NCBI GenBank assembly: GCA_003155465.1
Contig: PMCR01000194.1
Location: 1-30,469, forward strand
Reading direction: 5' to 3'
Source of the DNA: Myxococcales bacterium
GTDB lineage: Bacteria; Myxococcota; Polyangia; Fen-1088
DNA length: 30,469 bases
Under the pieces are notes generated by a model that was not told the origin of the DNA, did not search any database, and saw only the letters and a program-made list of their open reading frames with translations. A program made the translations under genes and the position numbers. Positions 383 through 21,664 of this stretch are shown one piece after another. Position 1 is the stretch's first letter, and each line of letters opens with the position of its first letter.

Positions 383-424
383 GCTCTGCCCTGTCATTCC
401 ACGATTATCTCCTCGGGGCAGAGC
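383..424. terminator. Perfect 9-bp inverted repeat between convergent genes, possible bidirectional terminator
   Basis: GCTCTGCCC (383-391) pairs exactly with GGGCAGAGC (416-424) around a 24-nt loop. It sits just past the speA stop and spans the stop of the opposing radical SAM gene (394-396). The position suits transcription termination for both genes. The loop is long and no T-run follows on either strand, so a classical intrinsic terminator is not proven. Confidence 0.35.
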
Positions 425-2850
425 TGGGAGTCGGCTAGGCAAGGGAAGGTCAGACCGCCGAGCACCGTAAGAATGCAGTTCAGGATCTGGGAGTTGCTGC
501 TACCATCCGCCCGGCTGCGCACGTCGACGACGGCGCCGTTGCTGTCGAGAACGATGGCATAGCCGACGGGATAGCCCGCGGCCCCACAACTCGAGATTGC
601 GTTTGCCAACTTCTCGTTGTCGGGGTTGGCAACAAAGGAACCGCGATAGAGGCTGCAGCCGCTGGGGTCGAGGCCTGCCAGCGAATCGGCGGCCTGCAGT
701 CCCAACTGGTTGAGTCGGTCTGAGGTGGCCTGGTCGCATCCGAGGACGGTTGGACCATAGCCCTGGGACAGGTAGAAACTTGCACAAAGCTTGGAACGAT
801 CGCTGCAACGGTCGACATAGCCTGAGAAACACGGTACGGCGGCCGCCATCCGGTCCTTCACCGTGCGATCGATATCGTCAGCGCAGGTATTGGGATTGAT
901 TTCAGCGGAATCGGGTTGAGCGTCAATGCTGACGTTGGTTCTTGCATCGGGTTGAGCGTCAACGCTGACACTCGTTCTTGCATCGGGTTGAGCGTCAACG
1001 CTGACGCTCGTTCTTGCATCGGGTTGGGCGTCAATGCCGACGCTCGCTCTTGCATCAGGTTGGGCGTCAATGCTGACGATCATTCTCGAATCAGGCTGAG
1101 TGTCCAGGCTGACGCTCGCTTCTGCAGCCGGTTGAACCTCGGTGCTGACGCCTGCCTCTGGCCGCGAAACCCCCATGGGATGCGAACCGCAGCTTGCCGA
1201 GGCGAAGAGAAAGATCAAACTCGATGCTGCTGCCGCTGCCATGGGCGAGAAGCGTCGCTCGGGCGCACCGAAGAGACGACCGACGTCGGCTTCGAAGCCG
1301 CTGATTTCAGCGCTGAACCCACGCGCTCCTTCGGCCAGGGCGTGGACGAGATCATCCCCACGCCTGTCATTTGGCATGTTCTGCGCCCCATCGAGTGTCT
1401 TGCGCAATGACTCGATGGCAAAGGCATTGAGGCGAGTCCGCAGATCGATAAGCGCGGTGTCCACGCCGGCAGCGGGCTGGTGCATATTCAGGCGGCGTGC
1501 CACGGCCAGCATCGTTTGGGTATCGTGAAGTCGCTGGGTCAGGCTGTGGTCGCCGAATGCCTCCATGCGAACCCGCGCCAGCAGTTCGGTGAATCGCTGG
1601 GCGACAGGATCGGCGAGCCGGTAATCCCAGCGCAGAGGATTGCCGCGCAGGCGCCCCTCGCGCAGCAAACGCTGGTAGAGATGGGTGCCGTGATAGGCCT
1701 TCATGCGGGTCACGTCGAAGAGGCCGTGCTCGATGCGGGCCAGGAAGCGTAGCCCTTCATCGATCGAGGCGACGGTCGAGCTCGGATGCACAAGCATCAG
1801 GTTGCTGATGCTTGCGACGCCGCACCTGTCCAGCTCCTGCAGAATCGAGAGCGCATGCTCGGGGTCGCACCGTCGGTGGAACCATCGCCCTTGCTCGGCA
1901 CTGGGAAACTCGATGCCAAGAAAACAACGCGCCAGCCCCACCTCGGAAAAGCGTCGCGCGATGGCCTGGGTGACTCGTTCTGCACGCAGCATGCACCCGA
2001 GAGCAAGCGTTGGAACCTTCGCGGCCTTGAGCTGGCTTTGCAGATGGGAAAGCCAAGTCAGGGCGTCCGCTTCGCGGTAGGGCAGGACGTGTTCGTCGAC
2101 AAAGTAGGCGTACCCATGGCCCGATCTCGCCAGCCCCGCCAGCTCGTCAGCCACGTCAGCCACCCGACGCCGACGAATTCCTCCCACGCCGAAGGCCGCC
2201 AGGAGCTTCCGCGAGTGACCTGCGCGCAGACCCTCATCGACCTCGGCGTCTTGCAGGGCCGCGGGGCCGCAGTAGCTGCACCGGCCGGCGCACCCTCGCG
2301 TGGCCGACATATGTGCCACCTTGCGGCCGAGCATCCGCATGCCCCCATGCCGGACGGGCACCAGCGTGGTGGGAAGCCGGCTAAGCACGTCGGCGGGAGG
2401 ACCATCGCCCGCGCGGGTTGACAAACCGGGCACGCAGGCAACCGACTCGCCCCGCACCAAGGCCCGAACCAAGGCGAGCAGGGGCACCTCGCCGGCAAAT
2501 CGCACCACGCTGTCCAGCCAAGCGTAGCGGCCGAGCAGCCACGTGCGCGCCAGGGTTGCGAATGGTCCACCGGCAGTGATATGGCCACGGTAGCCCAGCC
2601 GCCGGAGCAGCTCACCCAGCGCCAGCGGCAACACGGCCGAACCACCATCCTGCAAGGACAGGCCAACCACATGGGGCGGCTGCCTGCAGATGGACCGCGC
2701 GATGGGCAAGACGTTGTCGACATGGTTCAGCACGTGCCGGCTCGTGCGGACGGCTGCACCAGCCAAGGCCGCTTCGAGATAGCCGATGCCCAGATGGTCG
2801 TTGTGTTCCAGCCGGCGTCCGACCAATGCGACGGAAGCTCTGTTCTTCAT
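394..2850 (-). CDS. B12-binding-type radical SAM protein fused to a lipobox-like segment, 12-residue repeats and a Cys-rich domain
   Basis: An 818-residue protein with an unusual two-part build. Residues 1-170 look like a cobalamin-binding-type Rossmann domain (VVGLSLQDGG, ITAGGPFATLA). The radical SAM cluster motif is TRGCAGRCSYC with C187, C191 and C194, and the radical SAM barrel runs to about 490. After a ~45-residue linker comes a hydrophobic run (SSLIFLFASASC, C554) like a lipoprotein signal or membrane segment. Then come tandem 12-residue repeats of the type DAQPDARTSVSV (about 573-648) and a C-terminal domain with ten cysteines (656-818), whose end (LNCILTVLGGLTFPC) loosely recalls the AgmX/PglI C-terminal fold. 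The start ATG has a GAGGGGG Shine-Dalgarno. It lies 34 bp downstream of the YihY gene. The ATG for M492 has a GGGG stretch about 8 nt upstream, so a separate downstream gene with internal initiation is possible. Reaction and substrate are unknown. Confidence 0.8.
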   Translation of the reverse strand: MKNRASVALVGRRLEHNDHLGIGYLEAALAGAAVRTSRHVLNHVDNVLPIARSICRQPPHVVGLSLQDGGSAVLPLALGELLRRLGYRGHITAGGPFATLARTWLLGRYAWLDSVVRFAGEVPLLALVRALVRGESVACVPGLSTRAGDGPPADVLSRLPTTLVPVRHGGMRMLGRKVAHMSATRGCAGRCSYCGPAALQDAEVDEGLRAGHSRKLLAAFGVGGIRRRRVADVADELAGLARSGHGYAYFVDEHVLPYREADALTWLSHLQSQLKAAKVPTLALGCMLRAERVTQAIARRFSEVGLARCFLGIEFPSAEQGRWFHRRCDPEHALSILQELDRCGVASISNLMLVHPSSTVASIDEGLRFLARIEHGLFDVTRMKAYHGTHLYQRLLREGRLRGNPLRWDYRLADPVAQRFTELLARVRMEAFGDHSLTQRLHDTQTMLAVARRLNMHQPAAGVDTALIDLRTRLNAFAIESLRKTLDGAQNMPNDRRGDDLVHALAEGARGFSAEISGFEADVGRLFGAPERRFSPMAAAAASSLIFLFASASCGSHPMGVSRPEAGVSTEVQPAAEASVSLDTQPDSRMIVSIDAQPDARASVGIDAQPDARTSVSVDAQPDARTSVSVDAQPDARTNVSIDAQPDSAEINPNTCADDIDRTVKDRMAAAVPCFSGYVDRCSDRSKLCASFYLSQGYGPTVLGCDQATSDRLNQLGLQAADSLAGLDPSGCSLYRGSFVANPDNEKLANAISSCGAAGYPVGYAIVLDSNGAVVDVRSRADGSSNSQILNCILTVLGGLTFPCLADSQLCPEEIIVE
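916..1167. repeat. Tandem 36-bp in-frame repeats (about seven copies)
   Basis: Units begin at 916, 952, 988, 1024, 1060, 1096 and 1132 with an exact 36-bp period. The central copies differ at only a few bases; the ones near 1100-1167 are more diverged. On the minus strand they encode 12-residue units ending in DAQPD, forming an acidic, Pro-containing linker in the radical SAM fusion protein. The units are contiguous without spacers. Confidence 0.95.
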
Positions 2851-2884: not shown

Positions 2885-4216
2885 CTACTTCGGCATCAGC
2901 TCCGCGATCGTCGTCGCACCGATGCGAGCCAGGCGGGCTTCTTCCAAGTCCTTGATCAACGCGGCCAGAGCGGGAGAAGTGGCGCCTGGCGCGGTTTCCA
3001 GATCGCTTGAGCGAAACGCGGCCAGCACGTCCTGCAAGGTGATGGTGCCTGCGGCTCGACCCGGGATGAAGCCTTCCTTGTCGCCTTGCACTTCCGCCAA
3101 GAGTCCTTGACCTTTGAGCCGAGCTGCTATGCGATCGATGATCTCCACGGACAGGCCGAATTCGTGGCCGAGGAGGGTGCGCTCGATGCCCTTGCCTCCC
3201 CGTTCGTAGTCCGCGGCGACGAAAGCCAGGATCTGCGCGGCGACTAGGCCGTTTATGGGTTCGTCGTCGCGATGGCGTCGTTCTTCGGCCTCCAGCAAGC
3301 GCAGGTTCTGGATGGCGTTTGCGATCTCGGCGCCGCCCAGCACCACCCACCACGATATGTAGATCCACAAAAGGATAAGGGGCACGAGCGCCAGGGGGCC
3401 GTACACGCCGCTGTAGCTCGACAGCAGGACGCCCTTGGCAAAATGCACGAACCCCCATTTCAACCCTTCCAGCGCGAATCCCGTGACCAGGGTTCCGGCG
3501 AGGGCGGCGTACCAGCGCACGCGAATGTTGGGCAGCATCCAGTTGACCAGGAAGAGCCCGCCGAATTGAATCGACAGTGGCCCGAAGAAGCGCGCCGCCG
3601 ATCCTGAGCCAATAAGGCGCCCCGACCAGTAGAGGTAGGCGCCGGCCAGCACCGGCAGCAACGTGACCACCGGGTAGAAAATCAGGAACTTGCGAAACCA
3701 GGAACGCCGCACGGCCACGTGCCAGATGTCGTTGAAGGTGTTCTCGACGGTGTCATAGAGGAAGTAGCAGGTGGCCAGGGTGAAGGCCAGGCCCAGCCCG
3801 CCGGCAGCGCCAACCGCGACCTTTTCCGAAAACGACGCGAGTTCGCTGACTACGTCGCCCATGTCGGGCAGAACCTGGGTCGAGAGGAACTCCAGCAAGC
3901 GCGACTGGGCTTCGAGGCTGTGCGTCTGGCGCAGGGCTGCGAACACCAGCGCCGACAGCGGCACGAGGCCGAGGGTGGTTTGATAGGTCAGCGCCGCCGC
4001 CTGTTGCGGGCAGTGATCGCGCACCCATTGTTTGATGATGCGCAGGCCGAGGCGAGCCATGTACAAGACGGCGCGATCCGGCCGCGACAGCACAGCCGCC
4101 ATCTCGTGGGAGGGTGCCGTCATAGCGGCACGGATTTGGCTGAGCCAGAGACGCATGCCCAGAGATAGTTCATCACGTCGGGCGCGGATACAACCCGCCG
4201 TGCTCCGAAAATCCAT
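2885..4216 (-). CDS. YihY/BrkB-family inner membrane protein
   Basis: A 443-residue multi-spanning membrane protein of the YihY/BrkB (UPF0761) family. Family hallmarks are the early DHCPQQAAALTYQTTLGLVPL segment (about residues 66-88), the FLYDTVENTFNDIWHV helix region, and the late SSYSGVYGPLALVPLILLW stretch followed by YISWWVVLGGAEIANA. About six membrane helices are visible. A soluble C-terminal part (roughly 320-443) looks like a winged-helix or regulatory extension, common in longer members. The family's biochemical role is not settled; older annotation as ribonuclease BN is incorrect. The gene follows the radical SAM/SPASM gene by 55 bp and precedes the second radical SAM gene by 34 bp, so cotranscription is likely. 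The start is the first of several possible Met codons (M21, M32 and M39 are alternatives). Confidence 0.88.
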   Translation of the reverse strand: MDFRSTAGCIRARRDELSLGMRLWLSQIRAAMTAPSHEMAAVLSRPDRAVLYMARLGLRIIKQWVRDHCPQQAAALTYQTTLGLVPLSALVFAALRQTHSLEAQSRLLEFLSTQVLPDMGDVVSELASFSEKVAVGAAGGLGLAFTLATCYFLYDTVENTFNDIWHVAVRRSWFRKFLIFYPVVTLLPVLAGAYLYWSGRLIGSGSAARFFGPLSIQFGGLFLVNWMLPNIRVRWYAALAGTLVTGFALEGLKWGFVHFAKGVLLSSYSGVYGPLALVPLILLWIYISWWVVLGGAEIANAIQNLRLLEAEERRHRDDEPINGLVAAQILAFVAADYERGGKGIERTLLGHEFGLSVEIIDRIAARLKGQGLLAEVQGDKEGFIPGRAAGTITLQDVLAAFRSSDLETAPGATSPALAALIKDLEEARLARIGATTIAELMPK

Positions 4217-4271: not shown

Positions 4272-5825
4272 TCAAGCGTCGGCATAGCCGCCGGATTTGC
4301 CTCCTTTCTCGCCACCTACGGCCGGCTCGCCGCACGCCGGCCCCGGGTTGCTAGTGCACGCCGGAGACGTCGCGATGCCGCTTGGCCCCGGCCGTCGCCC
4401 GCTTCTCTTCGCGCGACTGGCGGGAGCGTGAGGCGGCACCAGGTCTTTGAAACAGAGGGGGTCGGAGCCCCGCAGGCTGCCGCAGAGGTGATAGGCCGAG
4501 GCGCGGCATCCTCCCCGGCAGTGCACCGGCGCATACTCGCAGGTCGCGCAGGGGCCACTCATGGCTTGTTTGTCCAACGTGCGCATCTCGTCGAGTATTG
4601 GCGACTCGTGCCAGACGCGGCTCATCGAGCGCTCGAGGAGGTTGCCGAGCGGGAATGACTGGAGAAACGGGCACGGGTAGGCGGTTCCGTCGGCTCCCAC
4701 GCTCAGCGTGTCGTAGCCGGCCGAGCAGATCATCATGCCGTTCTCCGCCGCGGGCGGGACCGGTGGATCCAGAAGAAAGGCATAGGTGGATTCCATCGAC
4801 ACTTGCAGCCGCCCCGCGTGCTTGCGGCCGGCTTCGGCGAGGATTCGGCTCAGTCGAAGTGAGCCTTCCTGATCCAACCGGAGGCTGCTTTCGCTGGCTT
4901 CACCGCGGCCGGCGGGGATGAACGGAATCGCTTTGTAGCCGGTGCAGCCCAGCGCGACGGCCAGGTCGACGATCTCCGTCAGACGGCCGATGTTGCGGGC
5001 GGTTGCGGTGGAACTGATGCTGGTGGCAATGCCCTCGCCTTTCAGGCGGCGGAGCGTATCGCAGGCGTTGGCGAAGGCCCCCTGCCGGCCGCGGAACGCA
5101 TCGTGCTCGGCGCCGACTCCGTCAATGCTCACCTGCACCTGGAACACCGGCAGGTCGCGCAGGGCGTGCAGGAGCCGGTCGGGCAGGCAGTGGCCGTTGG
5201 TGGCGATGTCCACCCTCATGCCGGTCGTCGCGATGTGGGTGAGCAGCTCGATGATGTCGGGCCGCAGGAATGGCTCGCCGCCGGAGAGGGACAGGTAGAG
5301 GACCTTGGCCGCGGCAAGTACGTCGATGAGAGCGTACGCTCCAGCGGTGTCGAGCTCGGTCGCCCGCTGTTTTCCCGAGGCGGTGAGACAGTGGGGGCAA
5401 TCCAGGTTGCAGGCATACGTGACGTCCCAGATCACGCTCTTGGGCGCCGAGAGCGCGGCGTTGCTCGATGCCGGCGAGGCCTGCGAGGGTGGCGGTGGCG
5501 CGTGCCCGGGCGGGGAGGTCTCGCCGAACTCGCCGAGCCGGACCGCGGCGATGCGGTTCAGCTCGGCGAGCGATTCCTGCACCTTGCGGCTCGCCTCCTC
5601 GCGGTCAAGACCGAAAGTGGTGCGGCATTCCTCGACGATTCGGTCGACAGTGTGCGCGCCGGTGCACCGCTCGGCCACCAGTGCGCCGAGTGCGCTGAAC
5701 TCCCTCTCCTCCGACAGGAAGGGATTGAAGATGAGTGCCCCGGAGCGCTCCCGCCTCAGCGTTATGAAGGAGAACAGGGCGGGCCGCAAGTCACCCGCCC
5801 CTCTCTCCTTCAAGGGAGTCGTCAC
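4272..5825 (-). CDS. Radical SAM/SPASM peptide-modifying enzyme with N-terminal PqqD-like domain
   Basis: A 517-residue enzyme of the PqqE/AlbA/mycofactocin-maturase type. Residues about 15-95 resemble a PqqD-like peptide-recognition (RRE) domain (LIFNPFLSEEREFSALGALV). A Pro/Ser linker leads to the radical SAM core with TYACNLDCPHC (C139, C143, C146) and the SGGEPFLRPD motif that contacts SAM. The SPASM region carries C367, C385, C426, C429, C436, C440, C448 and C458, enough for two auxiliary Fe-S clusters. The last ~55 residues are Gly/Pro/Ser-rich. Such enzymes install C-C or thioether bonds on ribosomal peptides. No small precursor gene is adjacent. Instead, the GTG start lies inside the stop of the C25 peptidase gene (GTGA overlap), whose product ends in a Cys-repeat tail; that tail is the obvious candidate substrate (inference). 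Confidence 0.9.
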   Translation of the reverse strand: MTTPLKERGAGDLRPALFSFITLRRERSGALIFNPFLSEEREFSALGALVAERCTGAHTVDRIVEECRTTFGLDREEASRKVQESLAELNRIAAVRLGEFGETSPPGHAPPPPSQASPASSNAALSAPKSVIWDVTYACNLDCPHCLTASGKQRATELDTAGAYALIDVLAAAKVLYLSLSGGEPFLRPDIIELLTHIATTGMRVDIATNGHCLPDRLLHALRDLPVFQVQVSIDGVGAEHDAFRGRQGAFANACDTLRRLKGEGIATSISSTATARNIGRLTEIVDLAVALGCTGYKAIPFIPAGRGEASESSLRLDQEGSLRLSRILAEAGRKHAGRLQVSMESTYAFLLDPPVPPAAENGMMICSAGYDTLSVGADGTAYPCPFLQSFPLGNLLERSMSRVWHESPILDEMRTLDKQAMSGPCATCEYAPVHCRGGCRASAYHLCGSLRGSDPLCFKDLVPPHAPASRAKRSGRRPGPSGIATSPACTSNPGPACGEPAVGGEKGGKSGGYADA

Positions 5826-8800
5826 TCGCTACCAACCCGCTTGAGCATGAGCAGGAGGGCCTTGCGGTTGGCCGGCTGGAGCCGCGCGAGGACCGCCTTC
5901 ACCTGCGGCGTGTCCACCTTCCGCGCGAGCTCATGGACGGTGCTTACGCCGCACTCCTTGAGAATGTCCACGAAGTCGTGGAAGTCAGGTGGGTCGATGG
6001 CCGGACAGCCGACGCCGACGCCCGCCATGCAGGAGATCCTGGCGCCACACTCGATCGCCATCGCGCACGACGTGATCTTCATGCCGCAGAGGATCTGCGA
6101 CTTGCACGTGACGCTCGCCGCGCAGTGGATGCTCGCGTTGCAGGTGACGTACGGCAGGCAGCCAACGGCGGTTTTGCAGATGATACTTGTCTTGCAGGAG
6201 ATGCTGGCTCCGCAGAGGACCTTCGGCATGCAGAGCGGCTTCGCCTTGACCGTGACGGCCCCGAAGTAGGGCACGCGGTCCTTGGCGGTTACGGTCACCT
6301 CCATGGTACCGGTGGCGGGTGGGGAGAAGTCGAAGTGCGCCGCGCCTGTCGCGTCGGTCTCGGCCGAGCGCATCCAGCTCTCCCCCATGGTCAGACAAAC
6401 CATCGCGTCCGGGAGGGCGAGGTCCGCGTCGGTCTTGACCTGAACGACGACATCCTGGTGCTCCTTTATGATCTCGGCCGGGTGGGTCACCTTCAGCGCC
6501 TTGGGCTTTCCCACCCAGACCGTCATCTCAGGGTCACCGAGCAGGTTCTGGGCGAAGATCGTCCACCGGTCCGAGAGGTCGAAGCGGGAGTCGTTGAGCA
6601 GGGCGATGTGACGGGTAGTCTCGAGCCGCGCGAAGAACTTGCGCGCGAAATCGTCGCCCGACCCGATCCACCCGAAGCGCGTGTAGCCGACGTAGGCCAC
6701 GGCACCGCCGGTGGCGTTCTGGAGCAACTTCTCGCTGGTAGCGTCGTTGGCGGTGAAGTCGGCGGTGAGACAGGACATAGCGTAGACGATGGGCTGGTGA
6801 AACCCGTTGCTGGCGGTCTGGGCCAGAACCCCGTCTACGTAGCAGCATCCGCCCTGGCTTCCATGCCCGCTCAAGCACAGGAAGTGGGGTCCCAGGTTGA
6901 GCGCGTCGCACACCCGGGCTTGCGTCACGTGCGCCAGCGGCGGCGAAGCGGCGTCGGCGGCGGGCAGGTCGACCTCGTCCTGGTACAGGCGTTTGACCAC
7001 ATCCACCCCGGGGAAGTCGGCGGCGATCTGCTTGCGCAGCGTTTCCTGGTCGGTCATCGACGAGTCGGCGCTGGTCCGGTCGAAGATGAAAAAGGGCGGC
7101 TCGTGCTCGTCCGACTCTCCGTAGACGACCACCCACGCCGTCGGCACCCCGATGTGGAAGACACTGCCGTAGATGACGACGATGTTCTCGCTCGGGCTAA
7201 GGTCGGTGTCGCTCTTGGCGAAGTACCAGCCACGGCCTGCGACCTCAGCCTCGGCGGTATACGGCATGATGCGCACGTCGGTGACGGTCACCTGCACGAA
7301 GAGACGCCACTCCAGGCTGTCGAAGACGTCTTTCAGGTGGATGAGCGAGTACGCGGCCCCGGCCCCGTGGTGGTACCTGTTGTCCTCGGGCGGGTTGCTC
7401 GCGGTCTTGCTCACCCAGGGCGCCCGGCCGAAGTTGGTGGACACCACGGTGAGCCGTCGCGGCCAGTTGAGATCGAGCGCGGTGCCGTCAGGCCGTTGCA
7501 GCTTCTCGTAGGCCAGTACCTTGTCGACGAACGCCCCCGCCTCGGCTACGGTGGCCACCGGCGCGCGGCCGAGGCCGACGTCGGCACCGAGCTTGACACC
7601 GTCCAGGTCGGTGCCGCCTGAGTGCTGGCCGTAGATCCCGTTGTCCACCAGGTCCCAGTCGTGAACACCGGGCAGACCGTAGCTCGAACCGACCAGGCTC
7701 GAGTAGTAGAGGTCCGTGGGGATGATATTCCAGGTGTAGAGCCAGCGCAGGTTGGCGTTCAGCAGCGCGGCTGATCCGTTCACCCGCACGAACTTGGTCG
7801 CGGCGACCGAGCGCGTGGCGTAGGTGTTGTCGGTCGTGAAGTACCAGCCGGGGTGCGTCGCATCCGAGGTCCCGGTTCCGTCGAACGGGATCACGGTTCC
7901 GTTGGCGGGATTGACCAGGGTCTCGTGGGTCGGATCGCCCGGCCACCAGATGTCAGGATTCCCCACCACGTACATCTTGAGGAATGCCCCCGTCCAGAAC
8001 GATCTGTTGTCCGCCGGGGGATCGACGGAAGCGATCCCGATGTCGCCACAGCCGTCGCCCGCGATTTGGCGTACGGGAATAATGTTGTCGTCGCCCCCGA
8101 GCAGAACCCAGGCAATGCCCCACTCGTCATAGGCCCATTTGAGGAAGTTGCGCAGAACCTCCTGCAGGTCACGGGTGCCGGTTCTGAAGTCGCCATGGAC
8201 GCCGTTTACGATGTCGGTGACCGTGACCACACGAGTGGAAAGGCCACGGCGCTTCTTCCATTCGCAGAGTCGCTTGAAGACGCCCACCATGTCGCCCACG
8301 CCGCTGGCCGAGCCCGGGATCGGCGTACTGGTGGCGGCGTCCCACGCCTGGTTGTCGGTGATGACCAGGTAGTCGACGAAAAAGGAAACCGGCCAGAGCG
8401 GTTCGAGATCCTGCACCCAGGCCGGGTTGACCACGTCGGCGCGGAGGATGTCCGTGATCCGGCGCGTCTCCGCCCGGTTGCGGGGCTGCCGGAAGTAGGC
8501 TCCTCCTCCCGCGGGGCGCGCGTCGGAGACGCCCATGTCCGGCTGGTAGCTCAACGTGATCGCCACCTCGGTCGCGAGCGTGATGATGCCTTTGCGGTTC
8601 TGGTTCACGGGGTGCATGTCGAGGCTGACGACCGTCGCGGCACCACGTTGCTCCACGGCAGCGACGCGGGCCACCGGCGGAGCCGAGGCCAGCACGCGCT
8701 CGTATTCCTCAAGCCGAGGCGGCGTAACACCCCGTCCCCGTGGAAGCTCGGACAGAACTCGCTCCTCCGCGACCGGTTTCGAGAACAGCGACGGTTTGAT

Positions 8801-9136
8801 CCGTCCCTTTCCCGGTCTGGCGGCGGCGACCGCCGGCTTGGGCTCTTGGACCGGGGCGATGAACACCGGCCCCTTCGTCATGTCGGCCTGCTTGACCACC
8901 TTGACCGCGAAGCGCTTCACGGCGGAGCCCGGCGGCAGGGCGACGCGCATGCGCTGCCACGGAATGGCGGGCGTGCCCGGCTCGCCGCGAGCGCGCGCGT
9001 CCTCGAGATCGAGCACAACCCCGAAGGGCGTCTCGGTCACCTTGAGTCCCGACGGCGAGTACTGCACCGTCAGAGTGAGCGTACCCTTCTGCCGCTTGGG
9101 GTCGCCCTTGACCTGTATCTTCCGGTTCATTGACAT
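5822..9136 (-). CDS. C25 (gingipain-type) cysteine peptidase with a 13-Cys C-x5-C repeat tail
   Basis: A 1104-residue clan CD cysteine peptidase. The N-terminal ~240 residues resemble a C25 propeptide (TPAIPWQRMRVALPPGSAV). The peptidase part includes DYLVITDNQAWD and WVLLGGDDNIIPVR. The catalytic dyad is visible: His758 in LSGHGSQGG and Cys789 in YAMSCLTADF. The core ends with NLLGDPEMTVWVG, followed by an Ig-like domain (about 885-965). Residues 969-1044 form a repeat in which 13 cysteines recur every six residues, with Ile or Val usually two before the next Cys. A helical end without repeats follows (about 1050-1104). Start choice: the ATG at 9136 has GGAGA six bases upstream; the open frame runs further to 9376 but reads as low-complexity, non-protein-like sequence. 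No Sec signal peptide is visible from this start. It is the first gene of the minus-strand cluster. Confidence 0.9.
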   Translation of the reverse strand: MSMNRKIQVKGDPKRQKGTLTLTVQYSPSGLKVTETPFGVVLDLEDARARGEPGTPAIPWQRMRVALPPGSAVKRFAVKVVKQADMTKGPVFIAPVQEPKPAVAAARPGKGRIKPSLFSKPVAEERVLSELPRGRGVTPPRLEEYERVLASAPPVARVAAVEQRGAATVVSLDMHPVNQNRKGIITLATEVAITLSYQPDMGVSDARPAGGGAYFRQPRNRAETRRITDILRADVVNPAWVQDLEPLWPVSFFVDYLVITDNQAWDAATSTPIPGSASGVGDMVGVFKRLCEWKKRRGLSTRVVTVTDIVNGVHGDFRTGTRDLQEVLRNFLKWAYDEWGIAWVLLGGDDNIIPVRQIAGDGCGDIGIASVDPPADNRSFWTGAFLKMYVVGNPDIWWPGDPTHETLVNPANGTVIPFDGTGTSDATHPGWYFTTDNTYATRSVAATKFVRVNGSAALLNANLRWLYTWNIIPTDLYYSSLVGSSYGLPGVHDWDLVDNGIYGQHSGGTDLDGVKLGADVGLGRAPVATVAEAGAFVDKVLAYEKLQRPDGTALDLNWPRRLTVVSTNFGRAPWVSKTASNPPEDNRYHHGAGAAYSLIHLKDVFDSLEWRLFVQVTVTDVRIMPYTAEAEVAGRGWYFAKSDTDLSPSENIVVIYGSVFHIGVPTAWVVVYGESDEHEPPFFIFDRTSADSSMTDQETLRKQIAADFPGVDVVKRLYQDEVDLPAADAASPPLAHVTQARVCDALNLGPHFLCLSGHGSQGGCCYVDGVLAQTASNGFHQPIVYAMSCLTADFTANDATSEKLLQNATGGAVAYVGYTRFGWIGSGDDFARKFFARLETTRHIALLNDSRFDLSDRWTIFAQNLLGDPEMTVWVGKPKALKVTHPAEIIKEHQDVVVQVKTDADLALPDAMVCLTMGESWMRSAETDATGAAHFDFSPPATGTMEVTVTAKDRVPYFGAVTVKAKPLCMPKVLCGASISCKTSIICKTAVGCLPYVTCNASIHCAASVTCKSQILCGMKITSCAMAIECGARISCMAGVGVGCPAIDPPDFHDFVDILKECGVSTVHELARKVDTPQVKAVLARLQPANRKALLLMLKRVGSE
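6005..6232 (-). repeat. Coding hexapeptide repeat, C-x5-C, 13 cysteines
   Basis: Encodes residues 969-1044 of the C25 peptidase. Cysteines fall at 969, 975, 981, 987, 993, 999, 1005, 1011, 1017, 1024, 1030, 1036 and 1044. Nine in a row are spaced exactly six apart, with single slips of one and two residues later. Typical units are CGASIS, CKTSII, CNASIH and CGARIS: small or polar residues at positions 2-4 and Ile/Val at position 5. The DNA units are diverged, so the spacing is conserved by selection on the protein rather than by recent duplication. Confidence 0.93.
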
Positions 9137-12832: not shown

Positions 12833-15800
12833 ATGGCCGTCCGAATCAGATGCGTGTATGGCGTAGGCGTTCTGTCTGCTCTCGCGCTGCTGGCGGGGTG
12901 CTACAAGATGACCTTCAGCGAATACAAGGGGGGTGGCGGGCATGACGGTGGAGATGCCGCGGGACAGAGCCTACCCGACCGAGGCGATTCCGGGGCCCCG
13001 GTAGGCGACGAGGTAGGGAACAAACATGACGGGGCGGCCGTAATCGAGCAGCCGGTCGGGGCTGGGCCAGACGCCTTGAGCACAGCGCCGGACCTTCTGA
13101 CAGCAACCAGCGTCGATGCGCTGCCTGTCCCGACACCGCCGGTCGATGCGATCCCTGACACGATACTGCCGGTCGACACGGCGCTTGACGCGATCATCGA
13201 CCTGAGGCCTGACACGCCGATCGACATGCTCCCTGACAAGCTCGATGTCATGCCTGACAGGCCGGTCGACAGGCTCCCTGATGTGCCCCCCCTGCCCCCC
13301 CCATCTGCCCTACTGAGCACCGGGGGGATCGCGCTTCTTTCCTTCGGCCCGGTCGCCCTTGGCTCATCGAGCAGCGTGCAGAGTTTCACCATCACGAACA
13401 ACGGGGGAGGAACTAGCGGCCCCATAGTCCTGAACTCGACGACCAGCGAGTTCGCCATCCGGAGCGGCGACACTTTCGATTGCGTGTCAAACGCCACCGT
13501 CTTGGTAGCGGCTGCGTATTGCACGGTACGCATCGTCTTCACCCCGAGCTCCAGCGCGGTCAACCACGGCGGCACAATCACCTTCTCGGCCATTCCCGGG
13601 GGCGGCGGGACTGTCAGTCTGACCGGTACGGTGCCGTCGGCGGCATCGCTGACCTATGGCACAGTTTCCAGCCTATCCTTCGAGCCCACACCAACTGGCA
13701 CATCAAGCGCTGCTCGGGGTTTCACGATCACCAATGCCGGGCAGGCAATGAGCGGTGCGATCGCCCTGACCTCGACGAGTAGCGAGTTTGCGATCCAGAA
13801 CGGCGCTGCCGACGATTGCGTGTCCAGCGTCACCACCTTGCCCGCGGGTGCGTTTTGCACGGTCTACATCGTGTTTACCCCAGCCGGAACCGGTCCGCGC
13901 GGGGGCACCATCACCTACTCGGCATCGCCGGGCGGAAGCGGAAGCGTAACTGTGTCCGGTGTCGGCTTGGGACCCGCGAGTCTGAGCAGTGGAGGAACCA
14001 CCAGCCTTTACTTTGGCGCTGTCGCGTCCGGCTCGTCGAGTAGCCCGCAGGTCTTCGCCATCACGAACACCGGGGAACAGATGAGCGGCCCTGTCACCCT
14101 GACCTCGACGAACAGCGAGTTCACCATCCAGAGAGGCTCCGCAGGCGATTGCACGTCAGGCGTCACCACCTTGGGCGCAGGCGCGTCTTGCACGGCCTAC
14201 GTGGTGTTTTCCCCAGCCGGAACCGGTTCACGCGTGGGTACGATCCCCTACTCGGCGTCGCCGGGTGGTATTGGAAGCGTAACTGTATCCGGTATCGGCC
14301 TGGCACCCGCGAGTCTCAGCAGCGGAGGCATTACAAGCCTCACCTTCAGCCCGGTCCCGCCCGGCTCGTCGAGTAGCCCACTGACTTTCGCCATCACGAA
14401 CACCGGGGAACAGACCAGCGGCCCCGTCACCCTGACCGCGACGAGTGGCGAATTCACCATCCAGGGCGGCTCCGGTGGCGATTGCGTGTCAGGCGTCACC
14501 ACCTTGGCCGCGGGTGCGTCTTGCACGGTACGCATCATCTTCAACCCCGCTGCCAACGGGAATCGGAGCGGAACCGTCACCTTCTCGGCCACGCCAGGAG
14601 GGGCCGGGGGTGTTGCCCTCAGTGGCACCGGCGGCTGCCCCACGGACTATCTCGACGATGGAACAGGAAAGTGCGTAGCCATGGCAGGAGTAGAGTGGAC
14701 CCAGCGGGCTTCGTCCCGAAGCTGGCGCGGCGTCGCGTCGTCGTCCGATGGCTCGAAGCTGGTCGCAGCGGCCATCCGCGGATTCATCTACACTTCGATG
14801 GACTACGGTGTGACCTGGACCCAGCGAGGCTCCCAGCAGTCCTGGTGTTCAGTTGCGTCATCGTCCGATGGCTCCAAACTCGTCGCCGGCAGTAGCGGGT
14901 ACATCTACACGTCGACAGATTCTGGGGTGACCTGGACGCAGCGGAACGCGCAGCCGTCCTGGTGGTCGTCAGTGGCGTCGTCATCCGACGGGACCAAGCT
15001 GGTCGCCGTGGCCGAGGGCGGGTACATTCATACGTCGACAGATTGGGGGGTGACCTGGACGCAACGGGCCTCGTCGCAGCATTGGTATTCAGTCGCGTCG
15101 TCGTCCGATGGGACCAAGCTGGTCGCGGTCGTCCGCGGCGGCTACATCTACACCTCGACGGATTCCGGGGTGACTTGGACGCAACGGGGCTCGTCGCAGA
15201 ACTGGTATGCGGTGGCGTCGTCGTCCGACGGGACCACGCTGGCCGCCGTGGTCTCCTACGACTACATCTACACTTCGATGGATTCTGGGGTCACCTGGAC
15301 GCAGCGGGGTTCGTCACGAAACTGGCAGTCAGTGGCGTCGTCGTCCGACGGGACCAAACTCGTCGCTGCGGCCACCGACGGATCCATCTACACCTCAACG
15401 GACTCCGGGGTGGTATGGACGCAGCGAGGCTCGTACCAATGGTGGCAAGCAGTGGCATCGTCGTCCGATGGCTCGAACCTGGTAGCACTCGAGAGCCGTG
15501 GCGCCGTCTGGACGTCGACGGATTCCGGGGTCACCTGGACACAGCGAGACTCGTCACACTATTGGTCTTCGGTCGCTTCGTCGTCCGACGGGACTAAGCT
15601 CGTCGCCGTGGCCTACGGCGGCTACATCCACACCTCGACGGATTCCGGGGTGACCTGGACGCAACGGGGCGAGCAGCAGGGTTGGTATTCGGTCGCGTCG
15701 TCGTCCGACGGCTCCAAGCTCGTCGCCGGCGGTAGCGGCTACTCCTACACGTCGACAGATTCTGGCGTGACTTGGACCCAGATCGCCTCGCAGCAGGGCT

Positions 15801-16369
15801 GGATGTCTGTGGCCTCATCATCCGACGGGACCAAGCTAGTCGCCGTGGCCTACGGCGGCTACATCTATACATCGACAGATTCTGGCGTGACTTGGGCCCA
15901 GCGGGGCTCCCAGCAGGACTGGTACTCGGTCGCGTCGTCATCCGACGGGACCAAGCTAGTCGCCGTAGGCCGCGGCTACATCTACACGTCGACGGACTCA
16001 GGGGTGACCTGGACGGAGCGGGGCTCACCGCGGCTCCGCTTGTCAGTTGCGTCGTCATCTGACGGGACTAAGCTGGCCGCCGCGGTCTACGAAAGCGGCG
16101 GCTACATCTACACATCGACGGATTCAGGGGTGACTTGGACGCAGCGGGGCTCGCCCGAGTCCTGCTTGTCAGTGGCGTCGTCGTCCGACGGCTCCAAGCT
16201 CGTCGCCCTGGCCGGCTGCATCTACACATCAACGGATTCCGGCGTGACCTGGACGCAACGGGGACCGTTACAGTCCTTTTTGTCGGTCGCAACGTCGTCT
16301 GACGGCACGAAGCTAGTCGCCGTCGCCAACGACGGTTCTATCTACACCTCCTCCGGCCCGGTGCCCTGA
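12833..16369 (+). CDS. Large surface lipoprotein with four Ig-like repeats and fourteen Asp-box propeller repeats
   Basis: A 1178-residue lipoprotein. The signal ends in lipobox LLAGC, followed by the short motif YKMTFSEYKG and an Asp/Pro-rich linker (about 35-155). Four repeats of about 111 residues follow (13304-14640), each with a core like FAITNTGEQMSGPVTLTSTN and a Cys pair; these match choice-of-anchor D / ASH-type Ig-like domains. A short bridge (CPTDYLDDGTGKC) leads to fourteen 38-42-residue repeats (14690-16366), each with SVASSSDGTKLVA and YIYTSTDSGVTWTQR. S-T-D-S-G-x-T-W is the sialidase/BNR Asp-box, so this part should fold as beta-propellers; fourteen units would suit two seven-bladed ones. 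No catalytic signature is seen, so adhesion or ligand binding is likely. GAGG lies nine bases before the ATG. Its stop is nine bases from that of the convergent PEGA gene. Confidence 0.88.
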   Translation: MAVRIRCVYGVGVLSALALLAGCYKMTFSEYKGGGGHDGGDAAGQSLPDRGDSGAPVGDEVGNKHDGAAVIEQPVGAGPDALSTAPDLLTATSVDALPVPTPPVDAIPDTILPVDTALDAIIDLRPDTPIDMLPDKLDVMPDRPVDRLPDVPPLPPPSALLSTGGIALLSFGPVALGSSSSVQSFTITNNGGGTSGPIVLNSTTSEFAIRSGDTFDCVSNATVLVAAAYCTVRIVFTPSSSAVNHGGTITFSAIPGGGGTVSLTGTVPSAASLTYGTVSSLSFEPTPTGTSSAARGFTITNAGQAMSGAIALTSTSSEFAIQNGAADDCVSSVTTLPAGAFCTVYIVFTPAGTGPRGGTITYSASPGGSGSVTVSGVGLGPASLSSGGTTSLYFGAVASGSSSSPQVFAITNTGEQMSGPVTLTSTNSEFTIQRGSAGDCTSGVTTLGAGASCTAYVVFSPAGTGSRVGTIPYSASPGGIGSVTVSGIGLAPASLSSGGITSLTFSPVPPGSSSSPLTFAITNTGEQTSGPVTLTATSGEFTIQGGSGGDCVSGVTTLAAGASCTVRIIFNPAANGNRSGTVTFSATPGGAGGVALSGTGGCPTDYLDDGTGKCVAMAGVEWTQRASSRSWRGVASSSDGSKLVAAAIRGFIYTSMDYGVTWTQRGSQQSWCSVASSSDGSKLVAGSSGYIYTSTDSGVTWTQRNAQPSWWSSVASSSDGTKLVAVAEGGYIHTSTDWGVTWTQRASSQHWYSVASSSDGTKLVAVVRGGYIYTSTDSGVTWTQRGSSQNWYAVASSSDGTTLAAVVSYDYIYTSMDSGVTWTQRGSSRNWQSVASSSDGTKLVAAATDGSIYTSTDSGVVWTQRGSYQWWQAVASSSDGSNLVALESRGAVWTSTDSGVTWTQRDSSHYWSSVASSSDGTKLVAVAYGGYIHTSTDSGVTWTQRGEQQGWYSVASSSDGSKLVAGGSGYSYTSTDSGVTWTQIASQQGWMSVASSSDGTKLVAVAYGGYIYTSTDSGVTWAQRGSQQDWYSVASSSDGTKLVAVGRGYIYTSTDSGVTWTERGSPRLRLSVASSSDGTKLAAAVYESGGYIYTSTDSGVTWTQRGSPESCLSVASSSDGSKLVALAGCIYTSTDSGVTWTQRGPLQSFLSVATSSDGTKLVAVANDGSIYTSSGPVP
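13304..14640 (+). repeat. Four coding repeats of about 333 bp (Ig-like domains)
   Basis: The conserved TTCRCCATCACGAAC-type core recurs near 13384, 13721, 14052 and 14385, giving a period of 332-337 bases. Copies three and four are the most alike, suggesting the latest duplication. Each encodes one choice-of-anchor/ASH-like domain with two cysteines that could form an intradomain disulfide. Confidence 0.9.
14690..16366 (+). repeat. Fourteen coding repeats of about 120 bp (Asp-box propeller units)
   Basis: Units begin at each V-x-W-T-Q and run 38-42 residues. The DNA of SVASSSDGTKLVA and TSTDSGVTWTQR is strongly conserved between units, while the positions after TQR (ASSRSW, GSQQSW, GSSQNW, GSPRLR and so on) and before the Asp-box vary. 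The invariant parts are the blade scaffold; the variable residues would cluster on the loops. Confidence 0.93.
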
Positions 16370-18945: not shown

Positions 18946-20454
18946 ATGTCAGGCAAGACCAGGACCTTCTCTCTGCCAGCCAAGCGGGCCAACAAGGCCG
19001 CGCAGGGAGATGCGCTTCTCGACGGGCGCTATCGGATCGTGCGCTTGCTGGGCGAGGGTGGCATGGGCTCGGTCTACCTGGCGTCTCACGTCGGGCTGGG
19101 CCGCGACGTGGCCATCAAGTTTCTGCACGCGGAACTGCTCAGCCGCGACGACGTGGTGGGGCGCTTCTATCGCGAAGCCCAGGCCGCGGCGGCCATTCGC
19201 CACAAGAACATCATCGAGGTGTTCGACGTCGGGATGTCCCCGCAGGGTGAGCCGTTCCTGGTCATGGAGTACCTCGAGGGCGAGAGCCTGGCCGGCCTGC
19301 TCAAGCGCGTGGGGCCGCTCAACCTGGGCGCGGTGTGCGCGGTGATGGAGCCGGCCCTGCAGGCGCTGCAAGCGGCCCACCGCAAGGGGATCGTCCACCG
19401 CGACCTCAAGCCGGACAACATCTTCCTTGCCTACCAGCAGGGCGAGCCGCCGGTGGTGAAGATCATCGACTTCGGCATCTCGAAGTTCACCCAAGGCGAG
19501 CTTGACAAGTGGCGCACCAAGACCGGATCGGTGATGGGAACGCCGGCCTACATGTCGCCCGAGCAGGCCCGCGGCAGCGCCGGACTCGATCATCGCACCG
19601 ACCTGTACTCGATGGGGACCATCCTTTTCGAGATGCTGACCGGAGCGCTGCCCTTTGCCGGCAACAACTTTGCCGAGTACCTGTCCGCGATGCTGATCGA
19701 TGACCCTAGAGCCCCGCAATCCCTGTGCGCGGGCTTCCCCTCCGACGCCGAGCCGATTGTACGTAAAGCCCTGGCCAAGAGTCCCGACCAGCGCTTCCAG
19801 AGCGCGACGGAAATGCTGGACGCGCTGGCGGCGCTGCCCAGCTACGACGCCCGGCAAGAACGTCTGACCTTGCTCGCGTCGACGGTCGAGGTCCGTGGTT
19901 TCGCCGCGGGCGATCTGGGGCAGGCGCTTTCCGGGCCCGGCCGATCGGCCGGCGGCAAGTCTGGTTCCACAAGGATTCTCGGCGCGTCCACGGTGCCGAC
20001 CGGCGCGCGGCCCTGGCGCTGGATCGGGTTGGGGCTGGCGCTGGCTGCAGTGGCGGCTGGCGCAGCCCTGTGGTTGCGGAAACCGACCAAGGCCCCTGCA
20101 CCGAGTGCGCCGATTGCGTCCCCCACCGTGCCCAGTCCGCCGGTCGCGCCCCCGCCCGCGCCCAGTCCGCCGGCCCCGGCGGCTGAGCTGCCCACTGCCG
20201 CGCCGACTCCGCCGAGCGAGACAGCGCTCTTGCCGAGCGCCGCCAGCGCACCGGCGTACAGCGACGCGATTGCGGGCGAGAAGAAATCCAAGAAGAGACA
20301 GCGGCCCGGGATTGCAGCGCGGCCGGCGGCCGGTGCCCTTCCGGGAGCCGCGGTCGACGTCCCGGCCGCGGTCGACCCGACCGCCGGCAAACGCGGGGAC
20401 AAGAAGCTGCGCAAGGGCGCCCGGGGCACCGAGATGTCCGAGGATTTTGAATAG
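18946..20454 (+). CDS. Transmembrane Ser/Thr protein kinase (Hanks/PknB type)
   Basis: A 502-residue kinase that phosphorylates Ser/Thr on protein partners from the cytoplasmic side of the membrane. All catalytic elements are present: glycine loop GEGGMG (36-41), Lys58 in VAIKF, Glu77, HRDLKPDN with D153 and N158, DFG at 175-177, SPE at 204-206 and the D219 region DLYSMG. The activation segment has several Thr/Ser (WRTKTGSVMGTPAY). After the kinase domain (about 28-300) comes a linker, one transmembrane helix (WRWIGLGLALAAVAAGAALW, about 360-382) and a Pro/Ala-rich extracytoplasmic tail ending in a basic, Lys-rich segment. No known sensor domain is visible. It heads an operon with the PEGA protein (9-bp gap) and the FGE-like lipoprotein, suggesting it controls or senses that envelope assembly (inference). 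Confidence 0.95.
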   Translation: MSGKTRTFSLPAKRANKAAQGDALLDGRYRIVRLLGEGGMGSVYLASHVGLGRDVAIKFLHAELLSRDDVVGRFYREAQAAAAIRHKNIIEVFDVGMSPQGEPFLVMEYLEGESLAGLLKRVGPLNLGAVCAVMEPALQALQAAHRKGIVHRDLKPDNIFLAYQQGEPPVVKIIDFGISKFTQGELDKWRTKTGSVMGTPAYMSPEQARGSAGLDHRTDLYSMGTILFEMLTGALPFAGNNFAEYLSAMLIDDPRAPQSLCAGFPSDAEPIVRKALAKSPDQRFQSATEMLDALAALPSYDARQERLTLLASTVEVRGFAAGDLGQALSGPGRSAGGKSGSTRILGASTVPTGARPWRWIGLGLALAAVAAGAALWLRKPTKAPAPSAPIASPTVPSPPVAPPPAPSPPAPAAELPTAAPTPPSETALLPSAASAPAYSDAIAGEKKSKKRQRPGIAARPAAGALPGAAVDVPAAVDPTAGKRGDKKLRKGARGTEMSEDFE

Positions 20455-20463
20455 GGAGATCCG

Positions 20464-21654
20464 ATGAGAAGACAGGTAGGCGCGCTTTGCCTGGCAGTCC
20501 TTTTGACTTGCGTGGCGTGGCCGGTGCTTGCGGGTGACAAGGAAGAAGCCAAGCAGCTTTTCGACGCCGGGCTGAAGCTCATGCGCCTGGACGACTTCGC
20601 CGGGGCGACCGCCAACTTCGAACGGTCGGTTGCGCTTTACCCGACGCAGAACAGCCTGTTCAACCTGGCCAACTGCTACAAGGCCATGCAGCGCTATGGC
20701 GACGCGATTGCAGTGGTCGAGCGCCTGAAACGGGATTTCGCCGACAAACTGAAACCCGAGATCAAGGAAGCAGTAGAACGCCACCAACAGGAGCTACAGT
20801 TGCTGGTGGCGCGCCTGACCCTAGAGACAGTGCCGGCGGACGCGACCATCAGGATCGACGGCAAGGAAGCGGGCACAGGGCCGACCCTGGGCCCCCTGCT
20901 GCTCGGGCCAGGTGAGCACGAGATCGAGGCTGCGCGGCCTGGCCATCACAGCCAGCGCCGTTCCGTGAAGCTGGTATCAGGCGCCGGGCGAACCGAGAAG
21001 TTCGTGCTGGAAGTCGAGGCGGGCCAGGTGGTCGTGCGCGCCAACATTGCGGGTGCGGCGGTGTTCGTGGACGGCCAGCAGGCTGGCACCACGCCGTTGA
21101 CCGAAGCCCTGCTATTGCCGCCGGGCACGCATGTGCTCGGCCTGCGCGCTGCCGATCACCAGTACACCGAGCGCGGGTTCGAGGTGCAGGCCGGCAGCAA
21201 TCAGGTTCTCGACATCGTCTTGACCGCGCAGGCCGCGCCGACGCCCGTGGCCGCGCTGGCAATCCCAGTGTCAGGAACGTCGCCATCCACGACAGAAAGC
21301 GGGCCAGCCCAGCCCAGGTCGCGCGTGCTGAGGATCGTGACCTGGGCCTCGGCGGCCGGGGCAGTGGCCGCGGGCGTTGTCGCGGGAACGTTTCTGATCA
21401 TCAGAAATGGCCAAGCGAACGATTTCCAGAAATACAACGACTTGGTCGAAAAGAACGGCGATCCGGCCGACAGGACAAGTCGACAGGACGCATACGACGG
21501 CATGAACCGCTCCAAGTGGATCGCAATCGGCAGCGGAATCGGCGCAGGCGCGCTGGCGGTCACCGCGCTGGTGACCTATCTTCTCGACGCCCGAGGGGAG
21601 GAGAGCAAGACAACAGTATCCCTGTCGCCCTTTGGTCTCGGCGTGAAGTTCTGA
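20464..21654 (+). CDS. Exported TPR/PEGA-domain membrane protein (paralogue)
   Basis: A 396-residue protein with a signal peptide (ALCLAVLLTCVAWPVLAG), TPR-like repeats (DKEEAKQLFDAGLKLMRLDD; LFNLANCYKAMQRYGDAIAV) and two PEGA-type domains (DATIRIDGKEAGTGP; AAVFVDGQQAGTTPL with PPGTHVLGLRAADH). A Pro/Thr linker and two hydrophobic segments (about 282-304 and 346-370) follow, and the C-terminus is TVSLSPFGLGVKF. Its architecture and much of its sequence match the protein at 16379-17587, so they are duplicates. GGGAG lies five bases before the ATG; the gene sits nine bases after the kinase and ten before the next lipoprotein gene. It is likely the envelope adaptor between kinase and lipoprotein (inference). 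Confidence 0.9.
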   Translation: MRRQVGALCLAVLLTCVAWPVLAGDKEEAKQLFDAGLKLMRLDDFAGATANFERSVALYPTQNSLFNLANCYKAMQRYGDAIAVVERLKRDFADKLKPEIKEAVERHQQELQLLVARLTLETVPADATIRIDGKEAGTGPTLGPLLLGPGEHEIEAARPGHHSQRRSVKLVSGAGRTEKFVLEVEAGQVVVRANIAGAAVFVDGQQAGTTPLTEALLLPPGTHVLGLRAADHQYTERGFEVQAGSNQVLDIVLTAQAAPTPVAALAIPVSGTSPSTTESGPAQPRSRVLRIVTWASAAGAVAAGVVAGTFLIIRNGQANDFQKYNDLVEKNGDPADRTSRQDAYDGMNRSKWIAIGSGIGAGALAVTALVTYLLDARGEESKTTVSLSPFGLGVKF

Positions 21655-21664
21655 GGGGGGTGCC

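What the first reader, a model, noticed from the sequence alone, without database searches (positions are those of the whole stretch)
4272..9136. C25 peptidase with a C-x5-C cysteine tail, coupled to a radical SAM/SPASM enzyme: a possible new peptide-modification system
Seen: residues 969-1044 of the peptidase carry 13 cysteines, nine of them exactly six residues apart, with Ile/Val at position 5 of most units. The next gene overlaps its stop by four bases (GTGA) and encodes a SPASM enzyme with an N-terminal PqqD-like recognition domain and eight SPASM cysteines. Known: SPASM enzymes with PqqD/RRE domains install thioether or C-C links on ribosomal peptides, and Cys-repeat cores are typical substrates of the ranthipeptide/sactipeptide group. 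Inference: the tail of a 1104-residue protease, not a short precursor, is the modified core. This could yield a cross-linked beta-solenoid-like rod, or a tail that controls, anchors or is released by the protease. I do not recall this arrangement being described.
Basis: partly seen in the sequence, partly recalled or inferred. Interest (0 to 1): 0.92.

Follow-up and report, generated by a model that had tools for sequence, protein, structure and literature searches.

The report
Protease tail with dedicated radical enzyme
A bacterial protease ends in a string of cysteine units and is encoded together with its own radical enzyme of a type that cross-links peptides, so the tail of a very large protein, rather than a small peptide, is probably what gets chemically stapled.

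Summary
A C25 (gingipain-like) protease of 1104 residues carries 13 Cys at residues 969-1044; ten of the 12 gaps are exactly six. The next gene overlaps its stop by GTGA and encodes a 7-Cys SPASM radical SAM enzyme with an RRE-type N-terminal domain; the closest solved folds are SkfB and SuiB. The pairing is conserved: a tail lies directly upstream of the enzyme in 4 of 4 loci read, and 8 of 11 tailed homologues share a contig length with a listed enzyme. Two things sharpen the finding. (1) The conserved unit is C-x3-[I/L/V] (163 of 166 units); it survives where the six-residue period breaks down, so the likely cross-link partner is the aliphatic residue at Cys+4, the spacing of PapB's CX3D. 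(2) The tail ends in a conserved, helix-predicted ~60-residue follower, the likely enzyme handle, and tail plus follower also occur on at least one non-C25 protein. Best reading: a modular, C-terminal, multiply cross-linked protein tail and its dedicated maturase. That the tail is the substrate is well supported, but indirectly; chemistry and role are inferred. A beta-solenoid is not supported.

The parts
5822..9136 (-). C25 (gingipain-like) peptidase with C-terminal Cys tail, 1104 aa; no signal peptide apparent in a crude hydropathy scan
6521..8287 (-). Peptidase_C25 domain (residues 284-872); putative catalytic His758 (6863-6865) and Cys789 (6770-6772), invariant in the 13 aligned sequences and aligned with the gingipain R GHGS and C regions
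6263..6505 (-). Ig-like domain (Peptidase_C25_C, residues 878-958)
   Evidence: 22.7 bits, below the cut-off of 25; beta strands
6005..6232 (-). Cys tail, residues 969-1044: 12 units C-x3-[IV]-x(1-3) and a closing Cys; proposed modified core
5825..6004 (-). Conserved C-terminal follower (residues 1045-1104, PAIDP... then four predicted helices); proposed recognition element
4272..5825 (-). Radical SAM/SPASM maturase, 517 aa from GTG, 4-base overlap with the protease stop
5532..5789 (-). PqqD/RRE-like N-terminal domain of the maturase (about ORF residues 13-98)
   Evidence: PF05402, marginal; strands, then three helices; SkfB and SuiB alignments begin at model residues 7 and 2
5388..5411 (-). 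CX3CX2C motif for the SAM-binding 4Fe-4S cluster (ORF residues 139-146)
   Evidence: invariant in A1
4452..4727 (-). SPASM domain with seven conserved Cys (P0013 numbering 355, 373, 414, 417, 424, 428, 446)

Best explanation
This is a two-gene protein-modification cassette. The maturase is made in step with the protease through overlapping genes. Its N-terminal RRE binds the C-terminal follower, and the enzyme then works along the flexible Cys tail, joining each Cys sulphur to the aliphatic residue four positions later (C-x3-[I/V/L]) and making a string of small thioether-type rings. The product is a cytosolically matured protease with a covalently stapled tail, most likely a stiff, protease-resistant stalk or attachment element. 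Shown: the anatomy, the conserved pairing, the C-x3-[ILV] rule, the separate follower, and tail plus follower on a non-C25 protein. Inferred: that the tail is the substrate (about 0.8), RRE-follower binding (about 0.6), Cys-to-+4 thioether linkage (about 0.45), the stalk role (about 0.2).
Against: No product has been seen; sequence cannot tell thioether from epimerisation, another link, or no change. PapB's acceptors at this spacing are Asp or Glu (passages); none of the 166 units here has an acid at +4. A shared fold shows no reaction. Three of 11 tailed homologues have no listed enzyme of equal contig length. The G495 tail hit (E 6.9e-5) scores no better than the spurious hits (2.5e-5 to 8.7e-4) and is accepted for its place beside the enzyme. 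Genome searches cover few phyla and score only 4 to 11 candidates per genome for the enzyme; the window's own lineage could not be searched. The follower's helices come from a model of mean pLDDT 54.
Confidence: 0.5

Rival explanations
1. The tail is a Cys-rich metal-binding element (Zn, Cu or Fe-S) whose thiols stay free; the maturase modifies something else or only a few residues.
For: Many closely spaced Cys and a protein without an apparent signal peptide, so probably in a reducing cytosol.
Against: A strict aliphatic at Cys+4 in 163 of 166 units is not needed for metal binding, whereas Cys-Cys spacing, which metal sites usually fix, varies from 5 to 13. Conserved pairing with an RRE/SPASM enzyme.
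Confidence: 0.15
2. The tail is a Cys-lined beta-solenoid of hexapeptide repeats; the Cys/Ile pattern is a structural inward-facing rule and the enzyme is coupled for another reason.
For: Ten of 12 gaps are six in the window; positions 0, 2 and 4 are mostly small or hydrophobic.
Against: In two distant tails only 4 of 13 units are six long, yet 11 of 13 keep C-x3-[ILV]; Cys number changes by single units (9 to 13 in the C25 tails other than L064) rather than by turns of three; no strands predicted, pLDDT about 21-31, though that model is poor throughout and Cys chemistry is not modelled.
Confidence: 0.12
3. The cassette is a RiPP pathway whose precursor is fused to its own processing protease: after cross-linking, the C25 domain cuts off and releases the tail as a small product.
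For: The putative catalytic His and Cys are retained; gingipains cut after Lys or Arg (recalled), and Lys or Arg follows the Cys in 52 of 112 six-long units.
Against: P0136 carries the tail without C25 homology. No transporter or immunity gene was seen beside the pair in L064, where the flanking genes look like housekeeping genes by eye. Lys sits inside the proposed rings, not between tail and body.
Confidence: 0.15

Closest known systems
PapA/PapB (freyrasin) ranthipeptide system
   Same: Radical SAM/SPASM maturase; iterated Cys units with a Cys-to-acceptor spacing of +4 (CX3D)
   Different: The +4 residue here is Ile/Val/Leu; the substrate would be the tail of a ~1100-residue enzyme with a C-terminal follower; the enzyme scores 72.6 bits against a PapB cut-off of 340
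SkfB (sporulation killing factor, sactipeptide maturase)
   Same: Closest solved fold along nearly the whole enzyme, N-terminal domain included
   Different: Scores 105.7 bits against a cut-off of 300; SkfB acts on a short precursor with one thioether (recalled)
SuiB (Lys-Trp link) and PqqE
   Same: SuiB aligns over model residues 2-448, N-terminal domain included; PqqE over the core
   Different: Different substrates and no Cys repeat (recalled); PqqE model 128.8 bits against 381
Mycofactocin maturase MftC
   Same: Best-scoring NCBIfam model, 186.2 bits, residues 124-460
   Different: Below its cut-off of 265; a mycofactocin precursor was not looked for
Anaerobic sulfatase-maturating enzymes
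   Different: They act on one Cys in a C-x-[AP]-x-R motif (recalled); here Cys+4 is aliphatic
Gingipains and PorU (C25 peptidases)
   Same: Catalytic domain and, weakly, the Ig-like domain
   Different: No signal peptide apparent; PorU model 49.7 bits against 420; type IX secretion genes were not looked for

Membership tests
Peptidase family C25 | Catalytic domain with His/Cys dyad | tested here: met
   PF01364 156.6 bits, cut-off 23; H758 and C789 invariant in 13 sequences and aligned with the GHGS and C regions of gingipain R; activity not tested
Secreted type IX (gingipain/PorU) protease | Signal peptide; PorU model above cut-off | tested here: not met
   Highest 12-residue hydropathy in the first 60 residues 0.84-1.73 in 14 proteins, a crude scan; P0010 and P0011 start late and L064 was read from its open frame; PorU 49.7 of 420 bits for the window protein
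Radical SAM/SPASM enzyme | CX3CX2C and seven-Cys SPASM domain | tested here: met
   PF04055 and PF13186 above cut-off; all ten Cys invariant in the 25 rows of A1
RRE (PqqD-like) domain | Winged-helix domain of three strands and three helices at the N-terminus | tested here: met
   PF05402 23.5 bits at a cut-off of 23.4, so marginal by sequence; order of strands and helices in a confident model; structural alignment of this part rests on SkfB and SuiB; peptide binding not tested
Ranthipeptide, PapB subfamily | NF047865 score above 340 | tested here: not met
   72.6 bits
Ranthipeptide, PapB subfamily | Asp/Glu acceptor at Cys+4 | tested here: not met
   163 of 166 units have an aliphatic residue there; the three others are N, S and G
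Ranthipeptide/sactipeptide (as chemistry) | Thioether from Cys sulphur to a peptide carbon | not testable with these tools
   Needs mass spectrometry
SkfB sactipeptide maturase | TIGR04403 score above 300 | tested here: not met
   105.7 bits
Mycofactocin MftC | TIGR03962 score above 265 | tested here: not met
   186.2 bits
Left-handed beta-helix / hexapeptide repeat | Unbroken six-residue period and predicted coils | tested here: inconclusive
   Period broken in L064 and P0136; AF2 gives no strands but the whole model is weak
C-terminal membrane sorting signal (PEP-CTERM type) | C-terminal transmembrane helix | tested here: inconclusive
   Highest 19-residue hydropathy is 1.12-2.03 over 14 proteins; in the window protein it lies in the body (1.79 at residue 652), in P0002, P0006 and L001 in the Cys tail (1.69-1.81); none in the last 60 residues. 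A crude scan, near the usual guide value of about 1.6 (recalled)

The most novel reading that the evidence does not exclude
The tail-plus-follower is a transferable C-terminal module that lets one SPASM enzyme staple the ends of otherwise unrelated full-size proteins at Cys and an unactivated aliphatic residue four positions on: a genetically encoded, multi-ring covalent stalk on enzymes, with recognition from the C-terminal side.
Probability: 0.3. Interest if true: 0.9.

Novelty: new variant of a known kind. Interest (0 to 1): 0.74.

Why it matters
Radical SAM peptide maturases are mostly studied on short precursors (recalled). A dedicated maturase for the repeated tail of a 1100-residue protease would extend this chemistry to large proteins, give a follower-guided rather than leader-guided example, and, if the acceptor is an unactivated Ile/Val/Leu side chain, a useful new protein-stapling reaction. 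The system is small (two genes) and directly testable in E. coli.

Tried and rejected
Own genome: not held. Plasmids: no protease match; enzyme matches in 442 records, each below 60% identity and none covering 80%. Viral contigs: 3 weak enzyme relatives at 21-26% identity, not followed. Distant enzymes (L003-L036, archaeal, about 28-45% identical): a regular-expression scan for Cys runs in the 40 loci then held found tails only in L001/L039, and by design missed the cut L002 tail. Six weaker Geobacterales enzyme hits (E 1e-70 to 1e-74, radical SAM core and SPASM only): no Cys run in their loci of 3-4 kb. Tail-profile hits L068, L069 and L070 dropped: L068 looks like a methylmalonyl-CoA mutase-type protein, the other two are antisense of low-complexity repeats, all judged by eye. 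Tail against PDB sequences: nothing significant, best E 0.14. Families of tail proteins: none in NCBIfam, one insignificant MgtE_N match for P0134 in Pfam. P0136 N-terminal part: no Pfam or NCBIfam match and no significant PDB match, so its identity stays unknown. P0134 (180 aa) might be a small precursor or a frame or start artefact; undecided. Thermoplasmatota: 0 of 369 genomes, without a positive control. Phylum of G002: 1 of 42, G002 itself. Class of G001: 1 of 257, G001 itself. Literature: no paper in the held library has radical SAM + SPASM + 'peptidase C25' or + gingipain, or + quinohemoprotein + 'protein substrate' + cross-link; none has radical SAM + SPASM + peptidase + 'cysteine repeat' or Geomonas + radical SAM + RiPP. 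Searches listed 1, 1, 1, 5 and 7 papers; I saw the listings only, except passages of PMC9413430. Subscription papers are mostly not held.

Full report
What is there. On the minus strand, window 5822-9136 encodes a 1104-residue peptidase of family C25 (PF01364, residues 284-872) followed by an Ig-like domain, a Cys-rich stretch and a conserved end. The two putative catalytic residues, H758 and C789, are invariant in the 13 aligned sequences and align with the GHGS and C regions of gingipain R. A crude hydropathy scan of 14 proteins shows no signal-peptide-like N-terminus (highest 12-residue mean 0.84-1.73); P0010 and P0011 begin later than the others and L064 was read from its open frame, so their true N-termini are uncertain. 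The highest 19-residue means are 1.12-2.03, in three proteins within the Cys tail, so a membrane role of the tail is not excluded by this scan. The next gene, 4272-5825, overlaps the stop by GTGA and encodes a radical SAM enzyme with a seven-Cys SPASM domain.

The tail. Residues 969-1044 hold 13 Cys with gaps 6,6,6,6,6,6,6,6,7,6,6,8; the ten Cys pairs at +6 are reached by 0 of 200,000 shuffles. The units are diverged in DNA (mean identity 0.53 among the ten six-long units), so this is not a fresh tandem duplication. I collected 18 tails: 12 including the window, L001, L064, and four short proteins, of which P0135 is the L002 fragment. No tail was dropped. In 163 of 166 units the residue four after the Cys is aliphatic (I, L, V or M counted). 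Most of these tails are related, so the count is not one of independent events; nine divergent tails, chosen by me, give 75 of 78 against a within-unit shuffle mean of 25.3. In units that are not six long the +4 register holds in 52 of 54, while the -2 register to the next Cys holds in 16 of 54. In the two most irregular tails, L064 and P0136, only 4 of 13 units are six long, but 11 of 13 keep the rule. The invariant is therefore Cys plus an aliphatic residue at +4, not the six-residue period.

The follower. After the last Cys comes P-x-I-[DN]-P and about 55 residues, conserved in the 14 aligned tails (P0133, P0134 and P0136 were found later with that profile; in L064 the reading frame changes within this segment). 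It is predicted as four helices, block pLDDT 68-83 and 55 for the last four residues, within a model whose overall confidence is low (mean 54.4). The Cys stretch has block pLDDT of about 21-31 and no secondary structure; as much of the catalytic domain is also poorly modelled, this says little. P0136 (246 aa) has the tail and follower on a different N-terminal part: its match to the window protein starts at residue 129 and there is no C25 homology before it. P0134 may be a second such case or an artefact. The end of the protein thus behaves as a module.

The pairing. Tail and enzyme genes are adjacent in all four loci with a close enzyme that I could read: window, L001, L002 (tail end only) and L064. 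The enzyme of L064 is 99.8% identical to P0096, itself 48% identical to the window's, and its protease is about 30% identical to the window's over some 390 C-terminal residues, so the pairing spans a wide range. For 8 of 11 tailed homologues the longest-contig length equals that of a listed enzyme, an indirect sign of a shared contig; P0004, P0005 and P0009 have no such partner among the 120 of 444 enzymes listed. In 395 Desulfobacterota genomes the enzyme (E up to 1e-80) is found in one, which is G001, the centre of the search; in 141 Geobacterales it is found in one by a strong match (G495, 4e-194), with six further hits at 1e-70 to 1e-74 that match only the core and SPASM part and have no Cys run in their loci. 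These searches scored at most 4 and 11 candidates per genome. The tail profile marks those same two genomes and three places judged spurious; the G495 hit scores no better than those three and is accepted because it lies beside the enzyme. In Geobacterales, C25 hits occur in 6 of 141 genomes (4 over the cut-off) and the only strong one is the tailed one. G001 holds one other C25 match; G002 holds 17, none on the contig of its tail, some of them fragments or weak. Each genome has a single enzyme hit, next to the tail, and a single tail. Distances of protease body and enzyme correlate over 11 pairs (r = 0.915, 1 of 20,000 permutations), as expected for joint inheritance; eight of these pairs rest on contig length, and common descent of the species would also give part of the correlation.

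How it most likely works. From this anatomy I infer that the enzyme docks on the follower through its RRE and processes the flexible Cys units in the cytosol. The fixed C-x3-aliphatic spacing recalls PapB, which links Cys to Asp in CX3D motifs, makes six links in PapA, and tolerates other spacings in vitro (PMC9413430, passages seen). Here the acceptor would be an unactivated aliphatic side chain or its alpha carbon. The result would be a chain of five-residue rings that stiffens the tail and shields it from proteolysis, useful on a protease. The purpose of the tail is the weakest step; release of the tail by the protease itself is a serious rival.

What is and is not new. The parts are known kinds: C25 peptidase, RRE, SPASM maturase. 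The arrangement, with a repeated core at the C-terminus of a full-size enzyme, an aliphatic +4 rule and a C-terminal handle, was not found in the searches of the held open-access library (listings only) or as an NCBIfam model. I file it as a new variant of a known kind rather than a member of the ranthipeptide or sactipeptide families, whose defining bond cannot be tested here and whose specific models tested (PapB, SkfB) are not met.

Limits. The genome and lineage of the window are unknown to me; Myxococcota, where one relative is named (P0092, Polyangiaceae), could not be searched. Metagenome contigs could not be read. Helical follower and RRE pairing rest on models and position, not on binding data.

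Noticed in passing
window 394-2850 (-): B12-binding radical SAM enzyme of 818 aa downstream of the pair, beyond a YihY/BrkB membrane protein (2885-4216); matches no NCBIfam model above cut-off.
   Followed up: no
window 26001-27806 (-): A third radical SAM protein (Radical_SAM_N2 plus core) in the same 30 kb.
   Followed up: no
window 18946-23362 (+): Run of genes for a Ser/Thr kinase, a TPR/PEGA protein and an FGE-sulfatase-domain protein.
   Followed up: no
window 12833-16369 (+): 1178-aa protein with Cep192/HYDIN-type Ig domains and sortilin/BNR repeats.
   Followed up: no
L001 543-2885 (+): A protein with a Peptidase_M66 match lies just upstream of the tailed C25 in the Desulfocapsa MAG; no such gene lies upstream of the C25 in the window.
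   Followed up: partly
L064 5400-5480 (-): In the Geobacterales genome the follower continues in another frame after a run of seven G: a frameshift or an assembly error.
   Followed up: partly
G438 (genome of L004, Thermoplasmatales MAG) and G002: 41 and 17 Peptidase_C25 matches in genomes of 2.0 and 3.1 Mb, some of them partial: large C25 families of unknown role.
   Followed up: no
P0014, P0036, P0058 and others: Public annotation names several of these enzymes mycofactocin MftC although the window enzyme is below that model's cut-off: probable mis-annotation.
   Followed up: partly
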